A stretch of 64,000 nt of DNA, from the NCBI GenBank assembly GCA_963978545.1, contig OZ021732.1:48184059-48248058 (forward strand). Reading direction: 5' to 3'. This DNA comes from Linyphia triangularis (Eukaryota > Arthropoda > Arachnida > Araneae > Linyphiidae). The notes below the pieces were generated by a model that worked only from the letters and a program-made list of their open reading frames with translations, did no database searches and was not told the origin of the DNA. A program made the position numbers and the translations under genes. Below are positions 1-64,000 of the stretch, in pieces. Positions within the stretch are counted from its first letter, which is position 1. Every line of letters begins with the position of its first letter.

Positions 1-90
1 ACTATTTTGAATATCTTCGAATCTGAATGTAATTATTATACTACTAATAAGAATAATAAGTATAATCGATTGGTAACGGGAAGTTCCCAT

Positions 91-164
91 GGCGCCGTGG
101 CCTAGTTGTTCAAAGCGCCTGTCTAGTAAACAGAAGATCACGAGTTCGAATCTCGTCGGTGCCT
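91..164 (+). tRNA. tRNA-Thr (AGT), class AGT-b
   Basis: Anticodon AGT at 125-127. Defines AGT-b: D arm GCCTAGTTGTTCAAAGC has a C-A mismatch and turns the invariant D-loop GG into GT; the anticodon stem CCTGT/ACAGA has a C-A mismatch at its base. Acceptor (GGCGCCG/CGGTGCC) and T arm (ACGAG/CTCGT) are intact. May be a pseudogene, yet this class occurs 18 times here. Confidence 0.55.
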
Positions 165-341
165 GAATGTCGAAGGAAATTTTTTGATTATATTCTGAAG
201 GTACGTTAACAACCACCGCTTCAATTGCTTGGAACTTAAATGTGTCAAGGGAGCTTGTTAAAGCACTTGTCTAGTAAACAGGCGATCACGAGTTAGAATA
301 TCCTCGGTAAAAGAATGTCGAACAAGAATATTTGCTTATAT

Positions 342-355
342 TTTAAATGTATTTC
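342..355. repeat. Target-site duplication, left copy
   Basis: TTTAAATGTATTTC, identical to 537-550. Uninterrupted units have this sequence once, so it was duplicated on SINE insertion. Confidence 0.88.
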
Positions 356-536
356 GCCGACCAAACGGTATAGTGGTTAGAGTGCTAGCTTCTAGACCGC
401 GAGGTTGCGGGTTCGAGTCCCGTGTTGGCATGGGTGTTTGTAAGTGTATGTTGGCTTGTCTAATGACGAATTTTTCGGCGCATTATAGCCCTCGTGTTGC
501 TGACGGCGCCAGATAATCTGAATACAACCAACCAAC
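356..536 (+). mobile_element. tRNA-derived SINE insertion
   Basis: A 181-bp sequence unlike anything else in the window, inserted into the spacer between psi3 and the TGT gene. The head (356-430) is tRNA-like: six acceptor pairs (GCCGAC with GTTGGC), an A-box-like TATAGTGGTTAGAG and a good B box GGTTCGAGTCC at 410-420. The anticodon loop could be CTTCTAG (Arg-TCT-like), but its stem does not pair, so the parent tRNA is uncertain. The body (431-523) is unrelated to tRNA and the tail is a short (AACC)n-like run, ACAACCAACCAAC. A 14-bp target duplication flanks it. No protein is encoded; mobilisation would depend on a LINE. Confidence 0.85.
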
Positions 537-550
537 TTTAAATGTATTTC
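537..550. repeat. Target-site duplication, right copy
   Basis: TTTAAATGTATTTC directly after the SINE tail, continuing into the normal unit sequence (AAAATTGATGTAATT). Confidence 0.88.
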
Positions 551-632
551 AAAATTGATGTAATTAATTTCTTTTGACCAATATGCATTGAATTTTAATA
601 AGTATACTCGATTGGTAGCGGAAAGTTAACAC

Positions 633-706
633 GGCACCGTGGCTTAGTTGGTTAAAGCACATGTCTTGTAAACAGGAGATCACGAGTTCGAATCTCTTCG
701 GTGCCT
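633..706 (+). tRNA. tRNA-Thr (TGT), mutated
   Basis: Anticodon TGT at 667-669. Two private changes weaken it: CATGT for CCTGT in the anticodon stem and CTCTT for CTCGT in the T stem. It follows the SINE, which may have come first or hitchhiked on a decaying unit. Confidence 0.6.
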
Positions 707-790
707 GAATTTCGAAGGAAATTTTTTGATTATATTCTAAATCTATGTTAACAACTACAGCTCCCTATATTGGAAAATAAATATTTCAAA

Positions 791-864
791 GGAGTCGTGG
801 CTTAGCTGGTTAAAGCGCCTGTCTCGTAAACAGGAGATCACCTGTTCGAAACTCGTTGGTGCCT
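791..864 (+). tRNA. tRNA-Thr (CGT), class CGT-a
   Basis: Anticodon CGT at 825-827. T loop reads TTCGAAA rather than TTCGAAT and the base after the T stem is T, so weaker than the usual copy. Confidence 0.5.
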
Positions 865-1135
865 GAATGTTGAAAGCAGAATTTTGCTGAAATTCTAAAT
901 GTATGCCTAAATAAATTTACTTAAATAAATCTCCTCTTAACTCTACTTTTTAATTATACATACAGCTCCAATTGATTGGCAACTAAAAGTCATCAACTCA
1001 CCATGACTTAGCCGGTTTTAGTGCCTGTCTAGTAAACAGGTGAGGACTATTTTGAATATCTTCGAATCTGAATGTAATTATTATACTACTAATAAGAATA
1101 ATAAGTATAATCGCTTGGTAAGGGGAAGTTCCCAT

Positions 1136-1209
1136 GGCGCCGTGGCTTAGTTGGTCAAAGCGCCTGTCTAGTAAACAGGAGATCACGAGTTCGAATCTCG
1201 TCGGTGCCT
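1136..1209 (+). tRNA. tRNA-Thr (AGT), class AGT-a
   Basis: Reference normal gene. Acceptor GGCGCCG/CGGTGCC (one G-T pair), D stem GCTT/AAGC, anticodon stem CCTGT/ACAGG around CTAGTAA with anticodon AGT at 1170-1172, T arm ACGAG-TTCGAAT-CTCGT, discriminator T. A34 is expected to become inosine in eukaryotes and read ACU and ACC. No intron, no encoded CCA. The body closely resembles animal tRNA-Thr-AGT apart from the T stem. Confidence 0.93.
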
Positions 1210-1293
1210 GAATTTCGAATTAAATTTTTTGATTATATTCTAAATCTATGTTAACAACCACAGCTCCCTATATTAGAAAATAAATATTTCAAA

Positions 1294-1367
1294 GGAGTCG
1301 TGGCTTAGCTGGTTAAAGCGCCTGTCTCGTAAACAGGAGATCACCTGTTCAAATCTCGTCGGTGCCT
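1294..1367 (+). tRNA. tRNA-Thr (CGT), class CGT-a
   Basis: Anticodon CGT at 1328-1330. T loop TTCAAAT, still within the B-box consensus. Sits directly after AGT in a 503-bp unit. Confidence 0.6.
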
Positions 1368-1500
1368 GAATGTTGAAAGCAAAATTTTGCTGAAATTCTG
1401 AATGTATGCCTAAATAAATTTACTAAAATAAATCTCCTCTTAACTCTACTTTTTAATTATACATACAGCTCCAATTGATTGGCAACTAAAAGTCATCAAC

Positions 1501-1572
1501 TCACCATGGCTTAGCCGGTTTTAGTGCCTGTCTAGTAAACAGGTGAGGACTATTTTGAATATCTTCGAATCT
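1501..1572 (+). pseudogene. psi1: tRNA-Thr(AGT) relic at the unit start (representative)
   Basis: Starts TCACCATGGCTTAGCCGG, an intact A-box region, then a perfect anticodon arm with loop CTAGTAA (AGT). After the anticodon arm there are about 10 extra bases and only a TTCGAATCT remnant of the T loop; the T stem and acceptor are gone. One copy begins each unit, at 998, 1501, 2351, 3201, 3903, 4406, 5256, 5958, 6461, 7311, 8161, 8664, 9514, 10017, 10867, 11717, 12220, 13070, 13573, 14423, 15125, 15628, 16835, 17338, 18188, 19039, 19564, 20413, 21273, 21776, 22136, 23343, 23846, 24696, 25546, 25906, 27113, 27616, 28466, 29316, 29819, 31025, 31528, 32378, 33228, 33588, 34448, 34951, 36505, 37355, 37715, 38922, 39425, 40275, 41482, 41985, 42835, 43201, 44408, 44774, 45624, 46127, 46977, 47502, 48351, 49211, 50071, 50574, 51099, 51948, 52451, 53301, 54150, 54653, 55503, 56353, 57032, 57881, 58741, 59244, 60116, 60966, 61815, 62318 and 63168. 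Unlikely to make a tRNA. Confidence 0.82.
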
Positions 1573-1608
1573 GAATGTAATTATTATACTACTTATAAGA
1601 ATAATAAG

Positions 1609-1638
1609 TATAATCGATTGGTAACGGGAAGTTTCCAT
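1609..1638 (+). promoter_or_regulatory. Upstream element of AGT genes: TATA-like at -30 and GGGAAGTTCCC (representative)
   Basis: TATAAT lies 30 to 25 bases before the first tRNA base, and the inverted repeat GGGAA-G-TTCCC (GGGAAGTTTCC in this copy) ends 3 bases before it. TGT genes keep TATACT at the same -30 position with GGAAAGTTCCC or GGAAAGTTAAC. Conservation of position suggests a pol III upstream or start-site element; this is inference. Confidence 0.5.
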
Positions 1639-1712
1639 GGCACCGTGGCTTAGTTGGTCAAAGCGCCTGTCTAGTAAACAGGAGATCACGAGTTCGAATC
1701 TCGTCGGTGCCT
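1639..1712 (+). tRNA. tRNA-Thr (AGT), class AGT-a
   Basis: Anticodon at 1673-1675. GGCACCG start gives seven Watson-Crick acceptor pairs, replacing the G-T pair of the reference. Confidence 0.93.
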
Positions 1713-1727
1713 GAATGTCGAAGGAAA

Positions 1728-1733
1728 TTTTTT
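1728..1733 (+). terminator. Pol III T6 terminator of AGT genes (representative)
   Basis: TTTTTT 16 to 21 bases after the tRNA end. The same T6 run follows nearly every AGT and TGT gene at the same spacing; a few copies have T7 after a base change. Confidence 0.75.
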
Positions 1734-1793
1734 GATTATATTCTGAAGGTACGTTAACAACCACCGCTTCAATTGCTTGGAACTTAAATGTGT

Positions 1794-1859
1794 CAAGGGA
1801 GCTGGTTAAAGCACTTGTCTAGTAAACATGCGATCACGAGTTAGAATATGGCCTGTAAA
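1794..1859 (+). pseudogene. psi3: tRNA-Thr(AGT) relic between AGT and TGT genes (representative)
   Basis: GAGCTGGTTAAAGCACTTG then CTAGTAA and ACAGG: D-loop side and anticodon arm are kept, but the 5' acceptor and first half of the D arm are missing, the T loop is GTTAGAATATC and the 3' acceptor is replaced by GTAAAAG. Copies lie about 293 bases after the unit starts at 1 (partial unit), 1501, 2351, 4406, 6461, 7311, 8664, 10017, 10867, 12220, 13573, 15628, 17338, 18188, 19564, 22136, 23846, 24696, 25906, 27616, 28466, 29819, 31528, 32378, 34951, 36505, 37715, 39425, 40275, 41985, 43201, 44774, 46127, 47502, 51099, 52451, 53301, 54653, 55503, 56353, 57032, 59244, 60116, 60966, 62318 and 63168, with one more near 35950. 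No B box, so probably not transcribed on its own. Confidence 0.82.
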
Positions 1860-1985
1860 AGAATGTCGAACAAGAATATTTGCTTACATTTTAAATGTAT
1901 TTTAAAATTGATGTAATTAATCTCTTTTGACCAATATGCATTGAATTTTAATAAGTATACTCGATTGGTAGCGGAAAGTTCCCAT

Positions 1986-2059
1986 GGCACCGTGGTTAAG
2001 TTGGTTAAAGGACCTGTCTTGTAAACAGGAGATCACGAGTTCGAATCTCGTCGGTGCCT
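1986..2059 (+). tRNA. tRNA-Thr (TGT), class TGT-b
   Basis: Anticodon TGT at 2020-2022. Defines TGT-b: GGTTAAGTTGGTTAAAGGAC replaces GGCTTAGTTGGTTAAAGCAC, so the D stem pairs poorly, although the A-box consensus TGGTTAAGTTGG still holds. Acceptor, anticodon and T arms are perfect. Confidence 0.72.
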
Positions 2060-2143
2060 GAATTTCGAATTAAATTTTTTGATTATATTCTAAATCTATG
2101 TTAACAACCACAGCTCCCTATATTGGAAAATAAATATTTCAAA

Positions 2144-2217
2144 GGAGTCGTGGCTTAGCTGGTTAAAGCGCCTGTCTCGTAAACAGGAGATCACCTGTTC
2201 GAATCTCGTCGGTGCCT
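2144..2217 (+). tRNA. tRNA-Thr (CGT), class CGT-a
   Basis: Reference CGT gene; anticodon at 2178-2180 in loop CTCGTAA, reading ACG. D and anticodon arms are perfect and A and B boxes intact. Acceptor GGAGTCG/CGGTGCC has an A-G mismatch and two G-T pairs, and T stem ACCTG/CTCGT has two mismatches, so stability is in doubt. Confidence 0.62.
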
Positions 2218-2227
2218 GAATGTTGAA

Positions 2228-2241
2228 AGCAAAATTTTGCT
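2228..2241 (+). terminator. T4 terminator inside 14-bp palindrome after CGT genes (representative)
   Basis: AGCAAAATTTTGCT is a perfect 14-bp palindrome; its TTTT starts 18 bases after the CGT tRNA end. A T5 run (CTACTTTTTAATT) about 60 bases later could back it up. Several copies have AGCAGAATTTTGCT, which breaks the palindrome but keeps T4. Confidence 0.6.
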
Positions 2242-2488
2242 GAAATTCTGAATGTATGCCTAAATAAATTTACTAAAATAAATCTCCTCTTAACTCTACT
2301 TTTTAATTATACAAACAGCTCCAATTGATTGGCAACTAAAAGTCATCAACTCACCATTGCTTAGCCGGTTTTAGTGCCTGTCTAGTAAACAGGTGAGGAC
2401 TATTTTGAATATTTTTGAATCTGAATGTAATTATTATACTACTAATAAGAATAATAAGTATAATCGATTGGTAACGGGAAGTTCCCAT

Positions 2489-2562
2489 GGCGCCGTGGCT
2501 TAGTTGGTCAAAGCGCCTGTCTAGTAAACAGGAGATCACGAGTTCGAATCTCGTCGGTGCCT
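2489..2562 (+). tRNA. tRNA-Thr (AGT), class AGT-a
   Basis: Anticodon at 2523-2525; identical to the 1136 gene, in a unit whose psi1 starts TCACCATTGC. Confidence 0.93.
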
Positions 2563-2835
2563 GAATGTCGAAGGAAATTTTTTGATTATATTCTGAAGGT
2601 CCGTTAACAACCACCGCTTCAATTGCTTGGAACTTAAATGTGTCAAGGGAGCTGGTTAAAGCACTTGTCTAGTAAACAGGCGATCACGAGTTAGAATATC
2701 GTCGGTAAAAGAATGTCGAACAAGAATATTTGCTTACATTTTAAATGTATTTCAAAATTGATGTAATTTATCTCTTTTGACCAATATGCATTGAATTTTA
2801 ATAAGTATACTCGATTGGTAGCGGAAAGTTCCCAC

Positions 2836-2909
2836 GGCACCGTGGCTTAGTTGGTTAAAGCACCTGTCTTGTAAACAGGAGATCACGAGTTCGAATCTCG
2901 TCGGTGCCT
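2836..2909 (+). tRNA. tRNA-Thr (TGT), class TGT-a
   Basis: Reference TGT gene; anticodon at 2870-2872 in loop CTTGTAA, reading ACA and by wobble ACG. Acceptor GGCACCG/CGGTGCC is fully paired, D stem GCTT/AAGC, anticodon stem CCTGT/ACAGG, T stem ACGAG/CTCGT. Preceded by GGAAAGTTCCCAC and followed by a T6 run. Confidence 0.93.
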
Positions 2910-2993
2910 GAATTTCGATGGAAATTTTTTGATTATATTCTAAATCTGTGTTAATAACCACAGCTCCCTATATTGGAAAATAAATATTTCATA

Positions 2994-3067
2994 GGAGTCT
3001 TGGCTTAGCTGGTTAAAGCGACTGTCTCGTAAAGAGGAAATCACCTGTTCGAATTTCGTCGGTGCCT
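2994..3067 (+). tRNA. tRNA-Thr (CGT), class CGT-b, possible pseudogene
   Basis: Anticodon at 3028-3030. Defines CGT-b: anticodon stem ACTGT/AGAGG has two mismatches, and GTCTTGG replaces GTCGTGG at the acceptor/D junction. Confidence 0.42.
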
Positions 3068-3338
3068 GAATGTTGAAAGCAAAATTTTGCTGAAATTCTG
3101 AATGTATGCCTAAATAAATTTACTAAAATAAATCTCCTCTTAACTCTACTTTTTAATTATACATACAGCTCCAATTGATTAACAACTAAAAGTCATCAAC
3201 TCACCATGGCTTAGCCGGTTTTAGTGCCTGTCTAGTAAACAGGTGAGGACTATTTTGAATATCTTCGAATCTGAATGTAATTATTATACTACTAATAAGA
3301 ATAATAAGTATAATCGATTGGTAACGGGAAGTTCCCAT

Positions 3339-3412
3339 GGCGCCGTGGCCTAGTTGTTCAAAGCACTTGTCTAGTAAACAGGCGATCACGAGTTAGAATA
3401 TCGTCGGTAAAA
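3339..3412 (+). pseudogene. AGT/psi3 hybrid pseudogene
   Basis: The 5' half is an AGT-b gene and the 3' half is psi3 (CACTTG stem, GTTAGAATATC, no 3' acceptor). Removing 148 bp between the two elements gives this 702-bp unit. Confidence 0.85.
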
Positions 3413-3537
3413 GAATGTCGAACAAGAATATTTGCTTACATTTTAAATGTATTTCAAAATTGATGTAATTTATCTCTTTTGACCAATATGCATTGAATTT
3501 TAATAAGTATACTCGATTGGTAGCGGAAAGTTCCCAC

Positions 3538-3611
3538 GGCACCGTGGCTTAGTTGGTTAAAGCACCTGTCTTGTAAACAGGAGATCACGAGTTCGAATCT
3601 CGTCGGTGCCT
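3538..3611 (+). tRNA. tRNA-Thr (TGT), class TGT-a
   Basis: Anticodon at 3572-3574; intact, follows an AGT/psi3 hybrid. Confidence 0.92.
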
Positions 3612-3695
3612 GAATTTCGAAGGAAATTTTTTGATTATATTCTAAATCTATGTTAACAACTACAGCTCCCTATATTGGAAAATAAATATTTCAAA

Positions 3696-3769
3696 GGAGT
3701 CGTGGCTTAGCTGGTTAAAGCGCCTGTCTCGTAAACAGGAGATCACCTGTTCGAATCTCGTTGGTGCCT
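3696..3769 (+). tRNA. tRNA-Thr (CGT), class CGT-a
   Basis: Anticodon at 3730-3732. CGTTGG at the T/acceptor junction turns G7-C66 into G-T. Confidence 0.58.
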
Positions 3770-4040
3770 GAATGTTGAAAGCAGAATTTTGCTGAAATTC
3801 TAAATGTATGCCTAAATAAATTTACTTAAATAAATCTCCTCTTAACTCTACTTTTTAATTATACATACAGCTCCAATTGATTGGCAACTAAAAGTCATCA
3901 ACTCACCATGACTTAGCCGGTTTTAGTGCCTGTCTAGTAAACAGGTGAGGACTATTTTGAATATCTTCGAATCTGAATGTAATTATTATACTACTAATAA
4001 GAATAATAAGTATAATCGATTGGTAACGGGAAGTTCCCAT

Positions 4041-4114
4041 GGCGCCGTGGCTTAGTTGGTCAAAGCGCCTGTCTAGTAAACAGGAGATCACGAGTTCGAA
4101 TCTCGTCGGTGCCT
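4041..4114 (+). tRNA. tRNA-Thr (AGT), class AGT-a
   Basis: Anticodon at 4075-4077; intact, 503-bp unit. Confidence 0.92.
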
Positions 4115-4198
4115 GAATTTCGAATTAAATTTTTTGATTATATTCTAAATCTATGTTAACAACCACAGCTCCCTATATTAGAAAATAAATATTTCAAA

Positions 4199-4272
4199 GG
4201 AGTCGTGGCTTAGCTGGTTAAAGCGCCTGTCTCGTAAACAGGAGATCATCTGTTCAAATCTCGTCGGTGCCT
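4199..4272 (+). tRNA. tRNA-Thr (CGT), class CGT-a
   Basis: Anticodon at 4233-4235. T stem ATCTG adds a third mismatch; T loop TTCAAAT. Confidence 0.5.
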
Positions 4273-4543
4273 GAATGTTGAAAGCAAAATTTTGCTGAAA
4301 TTCTGAATGTATGCCTAAATAAATTTACTAAAATAAATCTCCTCTTAACTCTACTTTTTAATTATACATACAGCTCCAATTGATTGGCAACTAAAAGTCA
4401 TCAACTCACCATGGCTTAGCCGGTTTTAGTGCCTGTCTAGTAAACAGGTGAGGACTATTTTGAATATTTTTGAATCTGAATGTAATTATTATACTACTAA
4501 TAAGAATAATAAGTATAATCGATTGGTAACGGGAAGTTCCCAT

Positions 4544-4617
4544 GGCGCCGTGGCTTAATTGGTCAAAGCGCTTGTCTAGTAAACAGGAGATCACGAGTTT
4601 GAATCTCGTCGGTGCCT
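4544..4617 (+). tRNA. tRNA-Thr (AGT), mutated
   Basis: Anticodon at 4578-4580. D loop AATTGG, stem CTTGT/ACAGG with a G-T pair, and T loop TTTGAAT, which damages the B box. Confidence 0.7.
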
Positions 4618-4890
4618 GAATGTCGAAGGAAATTTTTTGATTATATTCTGAAGGTCCGTTAACAACCACCGCTTCAATTGCTTGGAACTTAAATGTGTCA
4701 AGGGAGCTGGTTAAAGCACTTGTCTAGTAAACAGGCGATCACGAGTTAGAATATCGTCGGTAAAAGAATGTCGAACAAGAATATTTGCTTACATTTTAAA
4801 TGTATTTCAAAATTGATGTAATTTATCTCTTTTGACCAATATGCATTGAATTTTAATAAGTATACTCGATTGGTAGCGGAAAGTTCCCAC

Positions 4891-4964
4891 GGCACCGTGG
4901 CTTAGTTGGTTAAAGCACCTGTCTTGTAAACAGGAGATCACGAGTTCGAATCTCGTCGGTGCCT
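4891..4964 (+). tRNA. tRNA-Thr (TGT), class TGT-a
   Basis: Anticodon at 4925-4927; intact. Confidence 0.92.
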
Positions 4965-5048
4965 GAATTTCGATGGAAATTTTTTGATTATATTCTAAAT
5001 CTGTGTTAATAACCACAGCTCCCTATATTGGAAAATAAATATTTCATA

Positions 5049-5122
5049 GGAGTCTTGGCTTAGCTGGTTAAAGCGACTGTCTCGTAAAGAGGAAATCACC
5101 TGTTCGAATTTCGTCGGTGCCT
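5049..5122 (+). tRNA. tRNA-Thr (CGT), class CGT-b, possible pseudogene
   Basis: Anticodon at 5083-5085; ACTGT/AGAGG anticodon stem. Confidence 0.42.
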
Positions 5123-5393
5123 GAATGTTGAAAGCAAAATTTTGCTGAAATTCTGAATGTATGCCTAAATAAATTTACTAAAATAAATCTCCTCTTAACT
5201 CTACTTTTTAATTATACATACAGCTCCAATTGATTAACAACTAAAAGTCATCAACTCACCATGGCTTAGCCGGTTTTAGTGCCTGTCTAGTAAACAGGTG
5301 AGGACTATTTTGAATATCTTCGAATCTGAATGTAATTATTATACTACTAATAAGAATAATAAGTATAATCGATTGGTAACGGGAAGTTCCCAT

Positions 5394-5467
5394 GGCGCCG
5401 TGGCCTAGTTGTTCAAAGCACTTGTCTAGTAAACAGGCGATCACGAGTTAGAATATCGTCGGTAAAA
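5394..5467 (+). pseudogene. AGT/psi3 hybrid pseudogene
   Basis: Same junction as 3339, carried by the second 2055-bp repeat. Confidence 0.85.
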
Positions 5468-5592
5468 GAATGTCGAACAAGAATATTTGCTTACATTTTA
5501 AATGTATTTCAAAATTGATGTAATTTATCTCTTTTGACCAATATGCATTGAATTTTAATAAGTATACTCGATTGGTAGCGGAAAGTTCCCAC

Positions 5593-5666
5593 GGCACCGT
5601 GGCTTAGTTGGTTAAAGCACCTGTCTTGTAAACAGGAGATCACGAGTTCGAATCTCGTCGGTGCCT
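5593..5666 (+). tRNA. tRNA-Thr (TGT), class TGT-a
   Basis: Anticodon at 5627-5629; intact, 702-bp unit. Confidence 0.92.
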
Positions 5667-5750
5667 GAATTTCGAAGGAAATTTTTTGATTATATTCTAA
5701 ATCTATGTTAACAACTACAGCTCCCTATATTGGAAAATAAATATTTCAAA

Positions 5751-5824
5751 GGAGTCGTGGCTTAGCTGGTTAAAGCGCCTGTCTCGTAAACAGGAGATCA
5801 CCTGTTCGAATCTCGTTGGTGCCT
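5751..5824 (+). tRNA. tRNA-Thr (CGT), class CGT-a
   Basis: Anticodon at 5785-5787; CGTTGG junction as in 3696. Confidence 0.58.
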
Positions 5825-6095
5825 GAATGTTGAAAGCAGAATTTTGCTGAAATTCTAAATGTATGCCTAAATAAATTTACTTAAATAAATCTCCTCTTAA
5901 CTCTACTTTTTAATTATACATACAGCTCCAATTGATTGGCAACTAAAAGTCATCAACTCACCATGACTTAGCCGGTTTTAGTGCCTGTCTAGTAAACAGG
6001 TGAGGACTATTTTGAATATCTTCGAATCTGAATGTAATTATTATACTACTAATAAGAATAATAAGTATAATCGATTGGTAACGGGAAGTTCCCAT

Positions 6096-6169
6096 GGCGC
6101 CGTGGCTTAGTTGGTCAAAGCGCCTGTCTAGTAAACAGGAGATCACGAGTTCGAATCTCGTCGGTGCCT
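6096..6169 (+). tRNA. tRNA-Thr (AGT), class AGT-a
   Basis: Anticodon at 6130-6132; intact. Confidence 0.92.
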
Positions 6170-6253
6170 GAATTTCGAATTAAATTTTTTGATTATATTC
6201 TAAATCTATGTTAACAACCACAGCTCCCTATATTAGAAAATAAATATTTCAAA

Positions 6254-6327
6254 GGAGTCGTGGCTTAGCTGGTTAAAGCGCCTGTCTCGTAAACAGGAGA
6301 TCATCTGTTCAAATCTCGTCGGTGCCT
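6254..6327 (+). tRNA. tRNA-Thr (CGT), class CGT-a
   Basis: Anticodon at 6288-6290; ATCTG T stem as in 4199. Confidence 0.5.
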
Positions 6328-6598
6328 GAATGTTGAAAGCAAAATTTTGCTGAAATTCTGAATGTATGCCTAAATAAATTTACTAAAATAAATCTCCTCT
6401 TAACTCTACTTTTTAATTATACATACAGCTCCAATTGATTGGCAACTAAAAGTCATCAACTCACCATGGCTTAGCCGGTTTTAGTGCCTGTCTAGTAAAC
6501 AGGTGAGGACTATTTTGAATATTTTTGAATCTGAATGTAATTATTATACTACTAATAAGAATAATAAGTATAATCGATTGGTAACGGGAAGTTCCCAT

Positions 6599-6672
6599 GG
6601 CGCCGTGGCTTAGTTGGTCAAAGCGCTTGTCTAGTAAACAGGAGATCACGAGTTCGAATCTCGTCGGTGCCT
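6599..6672 (+). tRNA. tRNA-Thr (AGT), class AGT-a
   Basis: Anticodon at 6633-6635; CTTGT/ACAGG stem with one G-T pair, otherwise intact. Confidence 0.88.
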
Positions 6673-6945
6673 GAATGTCGAAGGAAATTTTTTGATTATA
6701 TTCTGAAGGTCCGTTAACAACCACCGCTTCAATTGCTTGGAACTTAAATGTGTCAAGGGAGCTGGTTAAAGCACTTGTCTAGTAAACAGGCGATCACGAG
6801 TTAGAATATCGTCGGTAAAAGAATGTCGAACAAGAATATTTGCTTACATTTTAAATGTATTTCAAAATTGATGTAATTTATCTCTTTTGACCAATATGCA
6901 TTGAATTTTAATAAGTATACTCGATTGGTAGCGGAAAGTTCCCAC

Positions 6946-18325: not shown

Positions 18326-18400
18326 GGCGCCGTGGCCTAGTTGTTCAAAGCGCCTGTCTAGAAAAACAGAAGATCACGAGTTCGAATCTCGTCGGTGCCT
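18326..18400 (+). pseudogene. tRNA-Thr AGT-b with broken anticodon loop
   Basis: One extra base and a change give CTAGAAAAACAGAAG, destroying the AGT anticodon and the 7-base loop. 75 nt long; the rest is AGT-b. Confidence 0.75.
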
Positions 18401-57243: not shown

Positions 57244-57515
57244 GAATGTCGAAGGAAATTTTTTGATTATATTCTGAAGGTCCGTTAACAACCACCGCTT
57301 CAATTGCTTGGAACTTAAATGTGTCAAGGGAGCTGGTTAAAGCACTTGTCTAGTAAACAGGCGATCACGAGTTAGAATATCGTCGGTAAAAGAATGTCGA
57401 ACAAGAATATTTGCTTACATTTTAAATGTATTTCAAAATTGATGTAATTTATCTCTTTTGACCAATATGCATTGAATTTAATAAGTATACTCGATTGGTA
57501 GCGGAAAGTTAACAC

Positions 57516-57589
57516 GGCACCGTGGCTTAGTTAGTTAAAGCACCTGTCTTGTAAACAGGAGATTACGAGTTCGAATCTCGTCGGTGCCT
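57516..57589 (+). tRNA. tRNA-Thr (TGT), class TGT-a
   Basis: Anticodon at 57550-57552; D loop AGTTAG. Confidence 0.78.
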
Positions 57590-57673
57590 GAATTTCGAAG
57601 GAAATTTTTTTATTGTATTCTAAATCTATGTCAACAACCACAACTCCCTATATTGGAAAATAAATATTTCAAA

Positions 57674-57747
57674 GGTGTCTTGGCTTAGCTGGTTAAAGCG
57701 CCTGTCTCGTAAACAGGAGATCACCTGTTCAAATCTCGTCAGTGCCT
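57674..57747 (+). tRNA. tRNA-Thr (CGT), class CGT-e
   Basis: Anticodon at 57708-57710. Confidence 0.48.
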
Positions 57748-58018
57748 GAATGTTGAAAGCAAAATTTTGCTGAAATTCTGAATGTATGCCTAAATAAATT
57801 TACTAAAATAAATCTCCTCTTAACTCTACTTTTTAAATATACATACAGCTCCAATTGATTGGCAACTAAAAGTCATCAACTCACCATGGCTTAGCCGGTT
57901 TTAGTGCCTGTCTAGTAAACAGGTGAGAACTATTTTGAATATCTTCGAATCTGAATGTAATTATTATACTACTAATAAGAATAATAAGTATAATCAATTG
58001 GTAACGGGAAGTTCCCAT

Positions 58019-58092
58019 GGCGCCGTGGCTAAGTTGGTTAAAGCGCCTGTCTAGTAAACAGGTGATCACGAGTTCGAATCTCGTCGGTGCCT
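58019..58092 (+). tRNA. tRNA-Thr (AGT), class AGT-d
   Basis: Anticodon at 58053-58055. Confidence 0.82.
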
Positions 58093-58176
58093 GAATTTCG
58101 AATTAAATTTTTTGATTATATTCTAAATCTATGTTAACAACCACAGCTCCCTATATTGGTAAATAAATATTTCAAA

Positions 58177-58250
58177 GGAGTCGTGGCTTAGTTGGTTAAA
58201 GCACCTGTCTTGTAAACATGCGATCACGAGTTAGAATATGGCCTGTAAAA
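58177..58250 (+). pseudogene. TGT-c/psi3 hybrid pseudogene
   Basis: Same junction as 20709, in the 860-bp unit at 57881. Confidence 0.84.
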
Positions 58251-58375
58251 GAATGTCGAACAAGAATATTTGCTTACATTTTAAATGTATTTTAAAATTG
58301 ATGTAATTAATCTCTTTTGACCAATATGCATTGAATTTTAATAAGTATACTCGATTGGTAGCGGAAAGTTCCCAT

Positions 58376-58449
58376 GGCACCGTGGTTAAGTTGGTTAAAG
58401 GACCTGTCTTGTAAACAGGAGATCACGAGTTCGAATCTCGTCGGTGCCT
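58376..58449 (+). tRNA. tRNA-Thr (TGT), class TGT-b
   Basis: Anticodon at 58410-58412. Confidence 0.72.
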
Positions 58450-58533
58450 GAATTTCGAAGGAAATTTTTTGATTATATTCTAAATCTATGTTAACAACCA
58501 CAGCTCCCTATATTGGAAAATAAATATTTCAAA

Positions 58534-58607
58534 GGAGTCGTGGCTTAGTTGGTTAAAGCACCTGTCTTGTAAACAGGATATCACGAGTTCGAATCTCGTC
58601 AGTGCCT
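58534..58607 (+). tRNA. tRNA-Thr (TGT), class TGT-c (in CGT slot)
   Basis: Anticodon at 58568-58570; variable loop ATATC. Confidence 0.63.
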
Positions 58608-58878
58608 GAATGTTGAAAGCAAAATTTTGCTGAAATTCTGAATGTATGCCTAAATAAATTTACTAAAATAAATCTCCTCTTAACTCTACTTTTTAATTAT
58701 ACATACAGCTCCAATTGATTGGCAACTAAAAGTCATCAACTCACCATGGCTTAGCCGGTTTTAGTGCCTGTCTAGTAAACAGGTGAGAACTATTTTGAAT
58801 ATCTTCGAATCTGAATGTAATTATTATACTACTAATAAGAATAATAAGTATAATCGATTGGTAACGGGAAATTCCCAT

Positions 58879-58952
58879 TTCGCCGTGGCTTAGTTGGTTA
58901 AAGCGCCTGTCTAGTAAACAGGAGATCACGAGTTCGAATCTCGTCGGTGCCT
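58879..58952 (+). tRNA. tRNA-Thr (AGT), class AGT-c
   Basis: Anticodon at 58913-58915; GGGAAATTCCC leader as in 50209. Confidence 0.55.
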
Positions 58953-59036
58953 GAATTTCGAATTAAATTTTTTGATTATATTCTAAATCTATGTTAACAA
59001 CCACAGCTCCCTATATTGGAAAATAAATATTTCAAA

Positions 59037-59110
59037 GGAGTCGTGGCTTAGCTGGTTAAAGCGCCTGTCTCGTAAGCAGGAGATCACCTGTTCGAATCTC
59101 GTCGGTGCCT
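59037..59110 (+). tRNA. tRNA-Thr (CGT), class CGT-a
   Basis: Anticodon at 59071-59073; GCAGG stem. Confidence 0.58.
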
Positions 59111-59403
59111 GAATGTTGAAAGCAAAATTTTGCTGAAATTCTGAATGTGTGCCTAAATAAATTTACTAAAATAAATCTCCTCTTAACTCTACTTTTTAAT
59201 TATACATACAGCTCCAATTGATTGGCAACTAAAAGTCATCAACTCACCATGACTTAGCCGGTTTTAGTGCCTGTCTAGTAAACAGGTGAGGACTATTTTG
59301 AATATCTTCGAATCTGAATGTAATTATTATACTACTAATAATAAATAAAGAATAAAGAATAAAGAATAATAAGTATAATCGATTGGTAACGGGAAGTTCC
59401 CAT

Positions 59404-59477
59404 GGCGCCGTGGCTTAGTTGGTCAAAGCGCCTGTCTAGTAAACAGGAGATCACGAGTTCGAATCTCGTCGGTGCCT
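59404..59477 (+). tRNA. tRNA-Thr (AGT), class AGT-a
   Basis: Anticodon at 59438-59440; only +22 microsatellite unit that keeps psi3 and TGT (872 bp). Confidence 0.92.
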
Positions 59478-59750
59478 GAATGTCGAAGGAAATTTTTTGA
59501 TTATATTCTGAAGGTCCGTTAACAACCACCGCTTCAATTGCTTGGAACTTAAATGTGTCAAGGGAGCTGGTTAAAGCACTTGTCTAGTAAACAGGCGATC
59601 ACGAGTTAGAATATCGTCGGTAAAAGAATGTCGAACAAGAATATTTGCTTACATTTTAAATGTATTTCAAAATTGATGTAATTTATCTCTTTTGACCAAT
59701 ATGCATTGAATTTTAATAAGTATACTCGATTGGTAGCGGGAAGTTCCCAC

Positions 59751-59824
59751 GGCACCGTGGCTTAGTTGGTTAAAGCACCTGTTTTGTAAACAGGAGATCA
59801 CGAGTTCGAATCTCGTCGGTGCCT
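59751..59824 (+). tRNA. tRNA-Thr (TGT), class TGT-a
   Basis: Anticodon at 59785-59787; loop TTTGTAA, leader GGGAAGTTCCCAC. Confidence 0.9.
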
Positions 59825-59908
59825 GAATTTCGAAGGAAATTTTTTGATTATATTCTAAATCTATGTTAACAACCACAGCTCCCTATATTGGAAAATAAAT
59901 ATTTCAAA

Positions 59909-59982
59909 GGAGTCGTGGCTTAGCTGGTTAAAGCGCCTGTCTCGTAAACAGGAGATCACCTGTTCAAATCTTGTCGGTGCCT
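59909..59982 (+). tRNA. tRNA-Thr (CGT), class CGT-a
   Basis: Anticodon at 59943-59945; CTTGT T stem. Confidence 0.52.
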
Positions 59983-60253
59983 GAATGTTGAAAGCAAAAT
60001 TTTGCTGAAATTCTGAATGTATGCCTAAATAAATTTACTAAAATAAATCTCCTCTTAACTCTACTTTTTAATTATACATACAGCTCCAATTGATTGGCAA
60101 CTAAAAGTCATCAACTCACCATGGCTTAGCCGGTTTTAGTGCCTGTCTAGTAAACAGGTGAGAACTATTTTGAATATCTTCGAATCTGAATGTAATTATT
60201 ATACTACTAATAAGAATAATAAGTATAATCGATTGGTAACGGGAAGTTCCCAT

Positions 60254-60327
60254 GGCGCCGTGGCTTAGTTGGTCAAAGCGCCTGTCTAGTAAACAGGAGA
60301 TCACGAGTTCGAATTTCGTCGGTGCCT
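60254..60327 (+). tRNA. tRNA-Thr (AGT), class AGT-a
   Basis: Anticodon at 60288-60290; 3' T stem TTCGT gives a G-T pair. Confidence 0.88.
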
Positions 60328-60600
60328 GAATGTCGAAGGAAATTTTTTGATTATATTCTGAAAGTACGTTAACAACCACAGCTTCAATTGCTTGGAACTT
60401 AAATGTGGCAAGGGAGCTGGTTAAAGCACTTGTCTAGTAAACAGGCGATCACGAGTTAGAATATCGTCGGTAAAAGAATGTCGAACAAGAATATTTGCTT
60501 ACATTTTAAATGTATTTCAAAATTGATGTAATTTATCTCTTTTGACCAATATGCATTGAATTTTAATAAGTATACTCGATTGGTAAAGGAAAGTTACCAC

Positions 60601-60674
60601 GGCACCGTGGCTTAGTTGGTTAAAGCACCTGTCTTGTAAACAGGAGATCACGAGTTCGTATCTCGACGGTGCCT
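60601..60674 (+). tRNA. tRNA-Thr (TGT), mutated
   Basis: Anticodon at 60635-60637; T loop TTCGTAT and 3' T stem CTCGA. Confidence 0.68.
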
Positions 60675-60758
60675 GAATTTCGATGGAAATTTTTTGATTA
60701 TATTCTAAATCTATGTTAATAACCACAGCTCCCTATATTGGAAAATAAATATTTCATA

Positions 60759-60832
60759 GGAGTCTTGGCTTAGCTGGTTAAAGCGACTGTCTCGTAAACA
60801 GGAAATCACCTGTTCGAATTTCGTCGGTGCCT
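60759..60832 (+). tRNA. tRNA-Thr (CGT), class CGT-b
   Basis: Anticodon at 60793-60795; ACTGT/ACAGG stem as in 53094. Confidence 0.48.
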
Positions 60833-61103
60833 GAATGTTGAAAGCAAAATTTTGCTGAAATTCTGAATGTATGCCTAAATAAATTTACTAAAATAAATCT
60901 CCTCTTAACTCTACTTTTTAATTATACATACAGCTCCAATTGATTGGCAACTAAAAGTCATCAACTCACCATGGCTTAGCCGGTTTTAGTGCCTGGCTAG
61001 TAAACATTTGAGGACTATTTTGAATATCTTCGAATCTGAATGTAATTATTATACTACTTATAAGAATAATAAGTATAATCGATTGGTAACGGGAAGTTCC
61101 CAT

Positions 61104-61177
61104 GGCGCCGTGGCTTAGTTGGTCAAAGTGCCTGTCTAGTAAACAGGAGATCACGAGTTCGAATCTCATCGGTTCCT
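61104..61177 (+). tRNA. tRNA-Thr (AGT), mutated
   Basis: Anticodon at 61138-61140; CTCATCGGTTCC 3' end as in 53439. Confidence 0.68.
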
Positions 61178-61449
61178 GAACGTCGAAGGAATTTTTTTGA
61201 TTATATTCTGAAGGTACGTTAACAACCACCGCTTCAATTGCTTGGAACTTAAATGTGTCAAGGGAGCTGGTTAAAGCACTTGTCTAGTAAACAGGCGATC
61301 ACGAGTTAGAATATCGTCGGTAAAAGAATGTCGAACAAGAATATTTGCTTACATTTTAAATGTATTTCAAAATTGATGTAATTAATCTCCTTTGACCAAT
61401 ATGCATTGAATTTAATAAGTATACTCGATTGGTAGCGGAAAGTTAACAC

Positions 61450-61523
61450 GGCACCGTGGCTTAGTTGGTTAAAGAACCTGTCTTGTAAACAGGAGATTAC
61501 GAGTTCGAATCTCGTCGGTGCCT
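61450..61523 (+). tRNA. tRNA-Thr (TGT), class TGT-a
   Basis: Anticodon at 61484-61486; AAAGAACC as in 53785. Confidence 0.85.
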
Positions 61524-61607
61524 GAATTTCGAAGGAAGTTTTTTTATTGTATTCTAAATCTATGTCAACAACCACAACTCCCTATATTGGAAAATAAATA
61601 TTTCAAA

Positions 61608-61681
61608 GGTGTCTTGGCTTAGCTGGTTAAAGCGCCTGTCTCGTAAACAGGAGATCACCTGTTCAAATCTCGTCAGTGCCT
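61608..61681 (+). tRNA. tRNA-Thr (CGT), class CGT-e
   Basis: Anticodon at 61642-61644. Confidence 0.48.
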
Positions 61682-61952
61682 GAATGTTGAAAGCAAAATT
61701 TTGCTGAAATTCTGAATGTATGCCTAAATAAATTTACTAAAATAAATCTCCTCTTAACTCTACTTTTTAATTATACATACAGCTCCAATTGATTGGCAAC
61801 TAAAAGTCTTCAACTCACCATGGCTTAGCCGGTTTTAGTGCCTGTCTAGTAAACAGGTGAGAACTATTTTGAATATCTTCGAATCTGAATGTAATTATTA
61901 TAGTACTAATAAGAATAATAAGTATAATCGATTGGTAACGGGAAGTTCCCAT

Positions 61953-62026
61953 GGCGCCGTGGCTTAGTTGGTCAAAGCGCCTGTCTAGTAAACAGGAGAT
62001 CACGAATTCGAATCTCGTCGGCACCT
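61953..62026 (+). tRNA. tRNA-Thr (AGT), class AGT-a
   Basis: Anticodon at 61987-61989; T stem ACGAA and 3' end GGCACCT. Confidence 0.8.
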
Positions 62027-62110
62027 GAATTTCGAATTAAATTTTTTGAGTATATTCTAAATCTATGTTAACAACCACAGCTCCCTATATTGGAAAATAA
62101 GTATTTCAAA

Positions 62111-62184
62111 GGAGTCGTGGCTTAGCTGGTTAAAGCGCCTGTCTCGTGAACAGGAGATCACCTGTTCAAATCTCGTCGGTGCCT
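62111..62184 (+). tRNA. tRNA-Thr (CGT), class CGT-d
   Basis: Anticodon at 62145-62147; G37. Confidence 0.5.
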
Positions 62185-62455
62185 GAATGTTGAAAGCAAA
62201 ATTTTGCTGAAATTCTGAATGTATGCCTAAGTAAATTTACTAAAATAAATCTCCTCTTAACTCTACTTTTAAATTATACATACAGCTCCAATTGATTGGC
62301 AACTAAAAGTCATCAACTCACCATGGCTTAGCCGGTTTTATTGCCTGTCTAGTAAACAGGTGAGGACTTTTTTGAATATCTTTGAATCTGAATGTAATTA
62401 TTATACTACTAATAAGAATAATAAGTATAATCGATTGGTAACGGGAAGTTCCCAT

Positions 62456-62529
62456 GGCGCCGTGGCTTAGTTGGTCAAAGCGCCTGTCTAGTAAGCAGGA
62501 GATCACGAGTTCGAATCTCGTCGGTTCCT
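62456..62529 (+). tRNA. tRNA-Thr (AGT), class AGT-a
   Basis: Anticodon at 62490-62492; GCAGG stem (G-T pair) and 3' end GGTTCCT. Confidence 0.8.
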
Positions 62530-62802
62530 GAATGTCGAAGGAAATTTTTTGATTATATTCTGAAGGTCCGTTAACAACCACCGCTTCAATTGCTTGGAAC
62601 TTAAATGTGTCAAGGGAGCTGGTTAAAGCACTTGTCTAGTAAACAGGCGATCACGAGTTAGAATATCGTCGGTAAAAGAATGTCGAACAAGAATATTTGC
62701 TTACATTTTAAATGTATTTCAAAATTGATGTAATTTATCTCTTTTGACCAATATGCATTGAATATTAATAAGTATACTCGATTGGTAGCGGAAAGTTCCC
62801 AC

Positions 62803-62876
62803 GGCACCGTGGCTTAGTTGGTTAAAGCACCTGTTTTGTAAACAGGAGATCACGAGTTCGAATCTCGTCGGTGCCT
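62803..62876 (+). tRNA. tRNA-Thr (TGT), class TGT-a
   Basis: Anticodon at 62837-62839; loop TTTGTAA. Confidence 0.9.
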
Positions 62877-62960
62877 GAATTTCGAAGGGAATTTTTTGAT
62901 TATATTCTAAATCTATGTTAACAACCACAGCTCCCTATATTGGAAAATAAATATTTCAAA

Positions 62961-63034
62961 GGAGTCGTGGCTTAGCTGGTTAAAGCGCCTGTCTCGTAAA
63001 CAGGAGATCACCTGTTCGAATCTCGTCGGTGCCT
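62961..63034 (+). tRNA. tRNA-Thr (CGT), class CGT-a
   Basis: Anticodon at 62995-62997. Confidence 0.62.
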
Positions 63035-63305
63035 GAATGTTGAAAGAAAAATTTTGCTGAAATTCTGAATGTATGCCTAAATAAATTTACTAAAATAAAT
63101 CTCCTCTTAACTCTACTTTTTAATTATACATACAGCTCCAATTGATTGGCAACTAAAAGTCATCAACTCACCATGGCTTAGCCGGTTTTAGTGCCTGTCT
63201 AGTAAACAGGTGAGGACTATTTTGAATATCTTCGAATCTGAATGTAATTATTATACTACTAATAAGAATAATAAGTATAATCGATTGGTAACAGGAAGTT
63301 CCCAT

Positions 63306-63379
63306 GGCGCCGTGGCTTAGTTGCTCAAAGCGCCTGTCTTGTAAACAGGAGATTACGCGTTCGAATCTCGTCGGTGACT
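63306..63379 (+). tRNA. tRNA-Thr (TGT) in the AGT slot
   Basis: Anticodon TGT at 63340-63342. Partner of 55641 in the 7665-bp duplication; D loop here is AGTTGCTC. Confidence 0.68.
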
Positions 63380-63652
63380 GAATGTCGAAGGAAATTTTTT
63401 GATTATATTCTGAAGGTACGTTAACAACCACCGCTTCAATTGCTTGGAATTTAAATGTGTCAAGGGAGCTGGTTAAAGCACTTGTCTAGTAAACAGGCGA
63501 TCACGAGTTAGAATATCGTCGGTAAAAGAATGTCGAACAAGAATATTTGCTTACATTTTAAATGTATTTCAAAATTGATGTAATTAATCTCTTTTGATAA
63601 ATACGCATTGAATTTTAATAAGTATACTCGATTGGTAGCGGAAAGTTAACAC

Positions 63653-63726
63653 GGCACCGTGGCTTTGTTGGTTAAAGCACCTGTCTTGTAAACAGGAGAT
63701 CACGAGTTCGAATCTCGTCGGTGCCT
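63653..63726 (+). tRNA. tRNA-Thr (TGT), class TGT-a
   Basis: Anticodon at 63687-63689; D arm GGCTTTGTTGG. Confidence 0.85.
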
Positions 63727-63810
63727 GAATTTCGAAGGAAATTTTTTGATTATATTCTAAATCTATGTTAACAACCACAGCTCCCTATATTGGAAAATAA
63801 ATATTTCAAA

Positions 63811-63884
63811 GGAGTCGTGGCTTAGCTGGTTAAAGCGCCTGTCTCGTAAACAGGAGATCACCTGTTCGAATCTCGTCGGTACCT
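63811..63884 (+). tRNA. tRNA-Thr (CGT), class CGT-a
   Basis: Anticodon at 63845-63847; 3' end GGTACCT. Last full gene before the window ends in spacer. Confidence 0.58.
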
Positions 63885-64000
63885 GAATGTTGAAAGCAAA
63901 ATTTTGCTGAAATTCTGAATGTATGCCTAAATAAATTTACTAAAATAAATCTCCTCTTAACTCTACTTTTTAATTATACATACAGCTCCAATTGATTGGC

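What the first reader, a model, noticed from the sequence alone, without database searches (positions are those of the whole stretch)
1..64000. Giant tandem array carrying all three threonine isoacceptors
About 225 full-length tRNA-Thr genes, with anticodons AGT, TGT and CGT interleaved in one 850-bp unit, fill 64 kb with nothing else but relics and one SINE. A single locus that can decode the entire ACN box, repeated dozens of times on one strand, is unusual; most animal tRNA clusters are mixed, and large single-amino-acid arrays are usually of one anticodon. It may serve demand for a threonine-rich product (mucin, silk-like or adhesive proteins), act as a TFIIIC/chromatin-boundary block, or be selfish satellite-like DNA. 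The choice among these is inference.
Basis: partly seen in the sequence, partly recalled or inferred. Interest (0 to 1): 0.85.

Follow-up and report, generated by a model that had tools for sequence, protein, structure and literature searches.

The report
Spider's giant tandem threonine-tRNA gene array
The window lies inside a half-megabase block of a spider chromosome built almost only from repeated threonine tRNA genes, most of them damaged; at least five other tRNA kinds in this genome have a giant block of their own, so the arrangement looks like a habit of this genome and not a special need for threonine.

Summary
The array is real. ARAGORN tRNA genes, all on one strand; one 850-bp unit covers 99.7% of the window, and the only other stretch of 15 bp or more is a 181-bp SINE-like insert. 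The unit has five tRNA-Thr-derived slots: AGT gene, relic, TGT gene, broken CGT gene, relic. Only 54 of 211 genes keep every stem pair and invariant base, and none of the 50 CGT copies does; intact CGT copies occur upstream in the array. The array spans about 0.57-0.62 Mb in a spider. Threonine is not special: Lys-TTT, Arg-TCG, Ala-AGC, Gly-GCC and initiator-Met have hundreds of exact core copies each, 97-99.6% on one strand and clustered; the last three were picked blind. In this window tRNA bodies change about as fast as neighbouring DNA; in the Lys and initiator-Met arrays two to four times slower. Best reading: an isotype-pure mega-array, grown from an AGT gene by unequal exchange and homogenised like rDNA, with selection on the supply of working genes rather than on single copies. 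Expression was not tested.

The parts
1..64000 (+). Part of a ~0.57-0.62 Mb tandem array of tRNA-Thr-derived monomers (G000:C13:48184059-48248058)
   Evidence: 211 ARAGORN genes; 99.72% covered by one 850-bp consensus; array extent
1639..2488 (+). Representative full 850-bp unit, slots A-B-C-D-E
   Evidence: slot spacings 148, 199, 158, 206, 139
1639..1712 (+). Slot A: tRNA-Thr(AGT), 72.8 bits, all stems paired; a T6 run starts 15 nt downstream in 71 of the 78 74-nt AGT genes of the window
1787..1860 (+). Slot B: tRNA-Thr relic (anticodon arm kept, acceptor stem lost); none of 47 B slots is called by ARAGORN
1986..2059 (+). Slot C: tRNA-Thr(TGT); this copy has two D-stem mismatches (61.6 bits); 30 of 80 TGT genes in the window are perfect
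2143..2218 (+). Slot D: tRNA-Thr(CGT), one acceptor and two T-stem mismatches (48.2 bits), the count seen in 48 of 50 CGT copies
2350..2423 (+). Slot E: tRNA-Thr(AGT) relic (anticodon arm and part of the D arm kept); none of 85 E slots is called by ARAGORN
1136..1638 (+). Representative short 503-bp unit, slots A-D-E
   Evidence: spacings 158, 206, 139
356..536 (+). 181-bp SINE-like insert (tRNA-like A and B boxes, by eye), the only non-array sequence of 15 bp or more; flanked by the 14-bp duplication TTTAAATGTATTTC; related copy at C8:6.24 Mb (92.6% over 121 bp)
18326..18400 (+). AGT gene with an altered, one-base-longer anticodon loop (ARAGORN 'agaa')

Best explanation
This is a homotypic tRNA mega-array in a spider genome. 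Shown: five tRNA-Thr-derived slots (AGT gene, relic, TGT gene, broken CGT gene, relic) form an 850-bp unit that repeats head to tail with a 503-bp three-slot derivative; hybrid slots join the upstream flank of one slot to the downstream flank of another across the tRNA body; 27% of called genes in the sequence held (167 of 615) are intact; at least five other isotypes have arrays of their own. Inferred: the tRNA bodies are the homology for unequal exchange that grows and homogenises the array; the founder was an AGT gene like the dispersed copies, and TGT and CGT arose from it by changes at anticodon position 34, which keep threonine identity; intact copies are transcribed by Pol III and supply part of the cell's tRNA-Thr, perhaps most of the TGT type; selection acts on the total number of working genes, so single copies drift and decay and whole units are amplified or lost, as in rDNA.
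For: Slot order, spacings and hybrids; flank assignment of hybrid slots: G A-to-C 25 of 25, H D-to-B 13 of 13, F A-to-B 3 of 3, J C-to-D 1 of 1, I A-to-D 4 of 6 with 2 upstream flanks unassigned. Slot homology extends into some flanks: A-C upstream z 6.1, downstream 12.9; A-D downstream 5.5; B-D downstream 6.7. The 7 exact core matches outside C13 that were listed are all AGT (1,170 matches in all, list cut at 100), and 6 of these 7 are ARAGORN genes with the array's body. Four conventional Thr-CGT genes have a different body. Intact genes: 54 of 211 calls in the window, 113 of 404 in C13:47.90-48.10 Mb. T runs of 4 or more within 40 nt downstream of 210 of 211 genes. Nearest-neighbour copies: 234 tRNA differences in 226 pairs x 74 sites against 296 in 226 x 90 flank sites, ratio 0.96 (sums). 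At matched base class slot A is like spacer (G/C sites 0.050 vs 0.037, A/T sites 0.016 vs 0.015; 29 units). Other arrays: Lys 763, Arg 362, Ala 385, Gly 494, iMet 546 exact core matches, 97-99.6% on one strand, isotypes confirmed by ARAGORN in fetched samples. Gene/spacer diversity 0.48 in Lys (28 units) and 0.26 in iMet (7 units).
Against: No expression, Pol III or read-depth data. The constraint results are mixed: pairwise differences over called copies (up to 60 per class) give gene/flank ratios of 0.51 and 0.66 for AGT and TGT in the window and 0.57, 0.28 and 0.61 for AGT, TGT and CGT upstream, but 2.59 for slot D; those samples hold only genes that ARAGORN accepts and mix slots with different flanks. 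Gly (8 units) gives 0.93. Variants in slots A and C are not enriched for bases of other slots (11 seen, 10.7 expected; 3 seen, 3.7 expected); only D is (11 against 6.0), so conversion between slots is supported only by D and the hybrids. Rare one-step variants of intact genes break structure in 21 of 31 cases (expected 59% +/- 8%), and in 15 of 17 after dropping those that match other common copies (expected 61% +/- 10%): no selection seen, on small numbers.
Confidence: 0.7

Rival explanations
1. Silent satellite: the array is selfish tandem DNA that happens to contain tRNA genes, held in repressive chromatin; the cell's tRNA-Thr comes from the dispersed genes.
For: Two of five slots are relics and the CGT slot is broken in all 50 copies here; near-neutral change within the window; dispersed intact AGT and CGT genes exist. 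A tandem Arabidopsis tRNA cluster is silenced in most tissues (PMC12308677, abstract and section 7 read).
Against: 54 perfect genes in 64 kb; boxes and terminators in most genes. No conventional dispersed TGT gene was found by three patterns (seen only to C13, no TGT outside C13, where 14 matches were fetched and only 3 are tRNAs: a Rickettsia-type gene, a Lys-bodied gene in the Lys array and a damaged Thr-array copy), so the array may be the main TGT source. Sister arrays for Lys and iMet show gene-level constraint.
Confidence: 0.2
2. Demand array: copy number was selected to supply tRNA-Thr for a threonine-rich secreted product such as glue, mucin or venom, perhaps in one gland.
For: Arabidopsis SYY cluster deletion changes accumulation of a Ser/Tyr/Pro-rich glycoprotein in root tips (PMC12308677, abstract), a precedent for tissue-specific use. 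Spiders make large protein secretions. Ala and Gly, abundant in silk, also have arrays, which would fit a general silk-gland demand.
Against: Arrays also exist for Lys, Arg and even initiator Met, whose demand follows initiation and not any product's composition. Spidroin pieces are 3.5-5.5% Thr (pieces only, glue proteins not examined). Most Thr copies are damaged.
Confidence: 0.05
3. Chromatin element: the array works as a TFIIIC-bound boundary, replication-pause block or centromere-like domain, the tRNA product being secondary.
For: A human tandem tRNA repeat is implicated as a boundary (PMC4041453, search listing and abstract start only). A-box matches in 185 and B-box matches in 199 of 211 genes, damaged ones included.
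Against: The six array loci lie at varied interior positions of five chromosomes (C3, C9, C10 twice, C12, C13); boxes are inherited by duplication, so their presence is weak evidence. Nothing tests binding.
Confidence: 0.05

Closest known systems
Entamoeba tRNA gene arrays (PMC2652664, abstract and passages read)
   Same: tRNA genes in head-to-tail tandem arrays, unit with up to five gene positions, copies thought to be homogenised by concerted evolution
   Different: many Entamoeba units combine different isotypes, though single-gene units such as Ala-AGC exist too; E. histolytica and E. dispar have short tandem repeats between genes. Here every array sampled is of one isotype (apart from anticodon-mutated copies), and this is an animal with additional dispersed genes
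Arabidopsis SYY (Ser-Tyr-Tyr) cluster (PMC12308677, abstract and section 7 read)
   Same: tandemly duplicated tRNA unit with major and minor variants and tRNA-like pseudogenes
   Different: mixed Ser/Tyr, 54 clustered Tyr genes; silenced in most tissues and active in root cap, which is untested here
Large tRNA clusters of Nematostella and teleosts (PMC2888827, passages read)
   Same: exceptionally large clusters (fifty and more members); adjacent tRNA pairs mostly parallel in many species
   Different: pairs in Nematostella and zebrafish are mostly heterogeneous; the arrays here are homotypic and reach hundreds of copies
Spider nuclear tRNA counts: Araneus ventricosus 10,558 tRNAs (PMC6557832); Uloborus diversus 3,084 tRNAs, 57,824 pseudogenes, 537 mismatched isotypes (PMC9912274) (passages read)
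   Same: very high tRNA counts; mismatched isotypes are what anticodon-mutated array copies would look like
   Different: the passages read give counts only and describe no array organisation
rDNA and satellite higher-order repeats (recalled)
   Same: multi-slot unit, unequal exchange, variants spreading through the array
   Different: units are tRNA genes of one isotype with decaying members

Membership tests
Tandem tRNA gene array (Entamoeba-type) | tRNA genes repeated head to tail in a defined unit | tested here: met
   850-bp and 503-bp units, one strand
Tandem tRNA gene array (Entamoeba-type) | almost all isotypes of the genome are in arrays | tested here: inconclusive
   6 of 6 isotypes examined have one (Thr, Lys, Arg came from the top list; Ala, Gly, iMet were picked blind); the others were not searched
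Tandem tRNA gene array (Entamoeba-type) | many units mix isotypes; in E. histolytica/E. dispar short tandem repeats lie between genes | tested here: not met
   Thr only in window; TRF's 22 rows show ~347/357-bp periods and a 7-bp run only
Silenced/tissue-specific plant tRNA cluster (SYY-like) | repressed in most tissues, active in a specific cell type | not testable with these tools
   no expression or methylation data
Functional nuclear tRNA-Thr gene | complete cloverleaf and invariant bases | tested here: met
   met by 54 of 211 in window: 24 AGT, 30 TGT, 0 CGT
Functional nuclear tRNA-Thr gene | internal A/B boxes and downstream T run | tested here: met
   A box 185 of 211, B box 199 of 211; T run of 4 or more in 210 of 211
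Functional nuclear tRNA-Thr gene | purifying selection on the gene body | tested here: inconclusive
   short-range tests see none: slots A and C like spacer at matched base class, D higher; nearest-neighbour ratio 0.96; broader comparisons give 0.28-0.66 for most classes but are biased to callable genes
Satellite higher-order repeat | multi-monomer unit with homogenised copies and recombinant units | tested here: met
   five-slot unit and 48 hybrid slots of 5 kinds among 373

The most novel reading that the evidence does not exclude
This spider keeps most or all of its nuclear tRNA repertoire in isotype-pure, strand-uniform mega-arrays at separate loci, each with a few dispersed founder-like copies: an rDNA-like organisation of the whole tRNA gene set in an animal. 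The arrays continually produce anticodon-shifted genes (Thr body with Lys anticodon, Lys body with Thr anticodon, Arg body with Leu anticodon, Gly body with Val anticodon) that the cell must tolerate.
Probability: 0.55. Interest if true: 0.8.

Novelty: new variant of a known kind. Interest (0 to 1): 0.62.

Why it matters
If tRNA genes in a spider are run like ribosomal DNA, by array and not by single gene, then tRNA dosage, concerted evolution and the birth of mis-reading tRNAs can be studied directly in one genome. Six arrays of different isotype, unit length and apparent age serve as replicates. The contrast between near-neutral Thr copies in this window and constrained Lys and initiator-Met copies makes it testable at which level selection keeps tRNA supply. 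It could also explain the very high and variable tRNA and pseudogene counts reported for spider genomes.

Tried and rejected
Threonine demand for silk: weakened by arrays for unrelated isotypes and by low Thr in six spidroin pieces. I had expected Ala to have no array and to argue against silk demand in that way; it does have one, so that line was dropped. Gly: the first pattern, from recalled sequence, found nothing; a shorter one found 494.

SINE-derived array: rejected, since the slots hold tRNA-Thr bodies at fixed spacings and the consensus shows no retroposon tail (by eye); only the 356-536 insert looks like a SINE. That label rests on boxes, the target duplication and a second copy, not on a repeat library.

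The raw diversity excess of tRNA over the rest of the unit (2.1-fold) is largely base composition plus slot D and was not used as evidence of faster mutation. Ungapped flank comparison for other arrays was spoiled by indels and replaced. One search failed for Lys and Gly and was redone. A strand count of anticodon arms is unusable because the arm is nearly palindromic. Conventional dispersed TGT gene: not found, but genes with A39 and no C40, genes without the GTTCRANYC or GTTCNAAYC T loop, and contigs after C13 for the array-type body were not covered. Species: not determined; 'spider' rests on Spidroin_N.
Full report
Observation. The window is G000:C13:48184059-48248058 of a 1.349-Gb genome in 369 contigs. 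ARAGORN tRNA genes in it, all on the + strand: 80 AGT, 80 TGT, 50 CGT and one undetermined. Rfam reports 218 matches over its gathering scores, the 150 shown being all tRNA. The strongest sequence periods are 850 and 503 bp. One 850-bp consensus covers 99.72% of the window on one strand; the only uncovered stretch of at least 15 bp is 356-536. That 181-bp insert has tRNA-like boxes (by eye), a 14-bp flanking duplication (TTTAAATGTATTTC), and a relative at C8:6.24 Mb (92.6% over 121 bp), so it is SINE-like.

Anatomy. 373 anticodon-arm matches fall into five main slots, A (52), B (47), C (62), D (79) and E (85), plus 48 slots of five hybrid kinds. The order A-B-C-D-E with spacings 148, 199, 158, 206, 139 makes the 850-bp unit; A-D-E makes the 503-bp unit. 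A is the AGT gene, C the TGT gene, D the CGT gene; B and E are relics, none of them called by ARAGORN. Flank assignment confirms the hybrids: G A-to-C 25 of 25, H D-to-B 13 of 13, F A-to-B 3 of 3, J C-to-D 1 of 1, I A-to-D 4 of 6; eight slots labelled A or C also have one flank of the other. So joins lie between the flanks, across the tRNA body, as expected from unequal exchange there. Of 65 called D slots, 15 carry TGT, and 14 of these have a paired T stem like slot C. Flank homology between A and C is strong (z 6.1 upstream, 12.9 downstream against shuffles), and weaker or absent between other slots.

Integrity. I scored 21 stem pairs and 11 invariant bases. In the window 54 of 211 called genes are perfect: 24 AGT, 30 TGT, none of 50 CGT. 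CGT copies have one acceptor and two T-stem mismatches in 48 of 50 and one more in two; three examples score 41-48 bits against 58-73 for the six A and C examples in the same 2.7 kb. In C13:47.90-48.10 Mb, 113 of 404 called genes are perfect Thr genes (24 AGT, 38 TGT, 51 CGT), and six more are perfect cloverleaves with a Thr body and a Lys TTT anticodon. So the array as a whole carries intact genes of all three anticodons, but this window does not.

Extent. The first dense slots are near 47.930 Mb. RNA-family hits continue at 48.117-48.18 Mb, in the window, at 48.256 and at 48.446 Mb (only 63 candidates were scored). Spot samples at 48.30, 48.35, 48.40, 48.45 and 48.50 Mb are all array at 96-99% identity; 48.55 Mb holds only a 76% relic; 48.60, 48.65, 48.70 and 48.80 Mb hold none. 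That gives about 0.57-0.62 Mb, if it is continuous between the samples. Gaps of 3-12 kb without slots occur between 47.93 and 48.10 Mb, with one 200-N gap at 47.941 Mb and an inverted stretch near 48.07-48.09 Mb. A strict 28-base core occurs 1,170 times genome-wide (1,137 +, 33 -); 137 lie in the window, 217 in the 200 kb held upstream, and 7 on C1-C9. The list was cut at 100, so contigs after C13 were not seen.

Organism. Spidroin_N (PF16763) matches 21 places here and none of 14 control genomes. Pieces read from six of those loci look like silk genes. The mitochondrial contig gives a COX1 of arachnid appearance (my reading). The species was not determined.

Other isotypes. The top list pointed to C10 and C12; fetched samples are tRNA-Lys(TTT) in 28 of 28 calls at ~221-bp spacing, and tRNA-Arg(TCG) in 12 of 14 calls, the other two having a TAG anticodon. 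Exact core counts: Lys 763 (757/6 by strand; 8 listed before C10), Arg 362 (360/2; 2 listed before C12). I then picked three isotypes without knowing the answer: Ala 385 (376/9; 11 listed before C9, then a cluster from C9:77.09 Mb), Gly 494 (13/481; a cluster from C3:90.03 Mb), initiator Met 546 (2/544; 5 listed before a cluster from C10:48.64 Mb). A first Gly pattern from recalled sequence found none. Samples confirmed Ala (2 of 2 calls), Gly (7 of 8, one with a Val GAC anticodon) and Met (8 of 8). All lists were cut at 100, so that nearly all copies lie at one locus is an inference from the listed places and the strand bias.

Dispersed Thr genes. Seven exact AGT core matches were listed outside C13 (C1, C2, C3, C6, C8, C9 twice); six are ARAGORN genes whose bodies match the array's. 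Four conventional CGT genes have a different body (C8, C10 twice, C15; 69-73 bits). For TGT, one search found none outside C13, and of 14 matches, all fetched, three are tRNAs by Rfam: a bacterial-type gene with an encoded CCA on C2, inside Rickettsia-like DNA; a Lys-bodied copy in the Lys array; and a damaged Thr-array copy. The array may thus be the main source of tRNA-Thr(TGT), within the limits of the patterns used.

Constraint. Nearest-neighbour pairs of copies differ at 234 of 226 x 74 tRNA sites and 296 of 226 x 90 flank sites, ratio 0.96 (sums, over 572 of 615 called genes: Thr anticodons, 74 or 76 nt, full flanks). In 29 syntenic 850-bp units anchored on spacer, slots A, C and D are together 2.1 times as variable as the rest; at matched base class A and C are 1.0-1.35 times spacer and D is about three times at G/C sites. 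Rare one-step variants of intact genes break structure in 21 of 31 cases against 59% +/- 8% expected, and in 15 of 17 against 61% +/- 10% after dropping variants shared with other common copies. Against this, all-copy comparisons give gene/flank ratios of 0.28-0.66 for AGT, TGT and upstream CGT classes, 2.59 for slot D, 0.44 Lys, 0.27 iMet, 0.28 Arg and 1.03 Gly; these samples are biased towards callable genes and mix flanks. With spacer-anchored units the Lys array gives 0.48 (28 units; 1 of 221 sliding blocks as low), iMet 0.26 (7 units; 3 of 249), Gly 0.93 (8 units; 93 of 165). So genes in two sister arrays are held back from change, while Thr copies in this window are not, visibly.

Mechanism. 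I think the array grew from an AGT gene, because the dispersed relatives seen are AGT and share its body, and TGT and CGT need only a change at anticodon position 34, which leaves the G35-U36 that ThrRS reads (established knowledge, not tested). The tRNA bodies give the homology for unequal exchange. Intact copies have boxes and T runs and are probably transcribed; the broken D copies keep boxes and a T4 run and could be transcribed and then destroyed. Selection on total supply, not on each copy, fits both the decay here and the persistence of intact genes. Expression is not shown.

Comparison. Tandem tRNA arrays are known in Entamoeba (PMC2652664), large clusters in Nematostella and teleosts (PMC2888827), and a mostly silenced, root-cap-active cluster in Arabidopsis (PMC12308677). 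Spider papers report very high tRNA counts (PMC6557832, PMC9912274) but the passages read do not describe arrays. My searches for spider, arachnid, chelicerate or array terms (open-licence papers only, listings of up to 20) listed no report of isotype-pure mega-arrays in a spider. I file this as a new variant of a known kind.

Noticed in passing
G000:C2:27891500-27894500 (L081): Rickettsia-like DNA inside a chromosome-sized contig: 95.6% over 2,449 bp to the Rickettsia endosymbiont of Culicoides impunctatus (L072), and 96.5% and 98.8% over 1,771 and 642 bp to that of C. newsteadi (L066), with a bacterial tRNA-Thr(TGT) bearing CCA. Transfer or assembly contamination is not decided.
   Followed up: partly
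C13:47.93-48.10 Mb (L012-L028): Thr-bodied tRNA genes with Lys anticodons (7 TTT, 9 CTT), six of the TTT ones with perfect cloverleaves.
   Followed up: partly
C12:27.37-27.41 Mb (L036, L037); C3:90.045 Mb (L079); C10:55.215 Mb (L088): Arg-bodied genes with a Leu TAG anticodon, a Gly-bodied gene with a Val GAC anticodon and a Lys-bodied gene with a Thr TGT anticodon inside arrays.
   Followed up: no
G000 C10:54.84-55.22, C12:27.16-27.41, C9:77.09-, C3:90.03-, C10:48.64- Mb: Giant arrays of Lys, Arg, Ala, Gly and initiator-Met tRNA genes.
   Followed up: partly
C9:79.48-79.72 Mb: Four spidroin N-domain matches of nearly equal score (three equal) about 80 kb apart on one strand.
   Followed up: no
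C13:48.07-48.09 Mb (L026, L027): An inverted stretch of the Thr array, with genes on the - strand.
   Followed up: no
C9:38422100-38423100 (L050): Two AGT genes on opposite strands about 257 bp apart with similar downstream flanks, an inverted pair outside the array.
   Followed up: no
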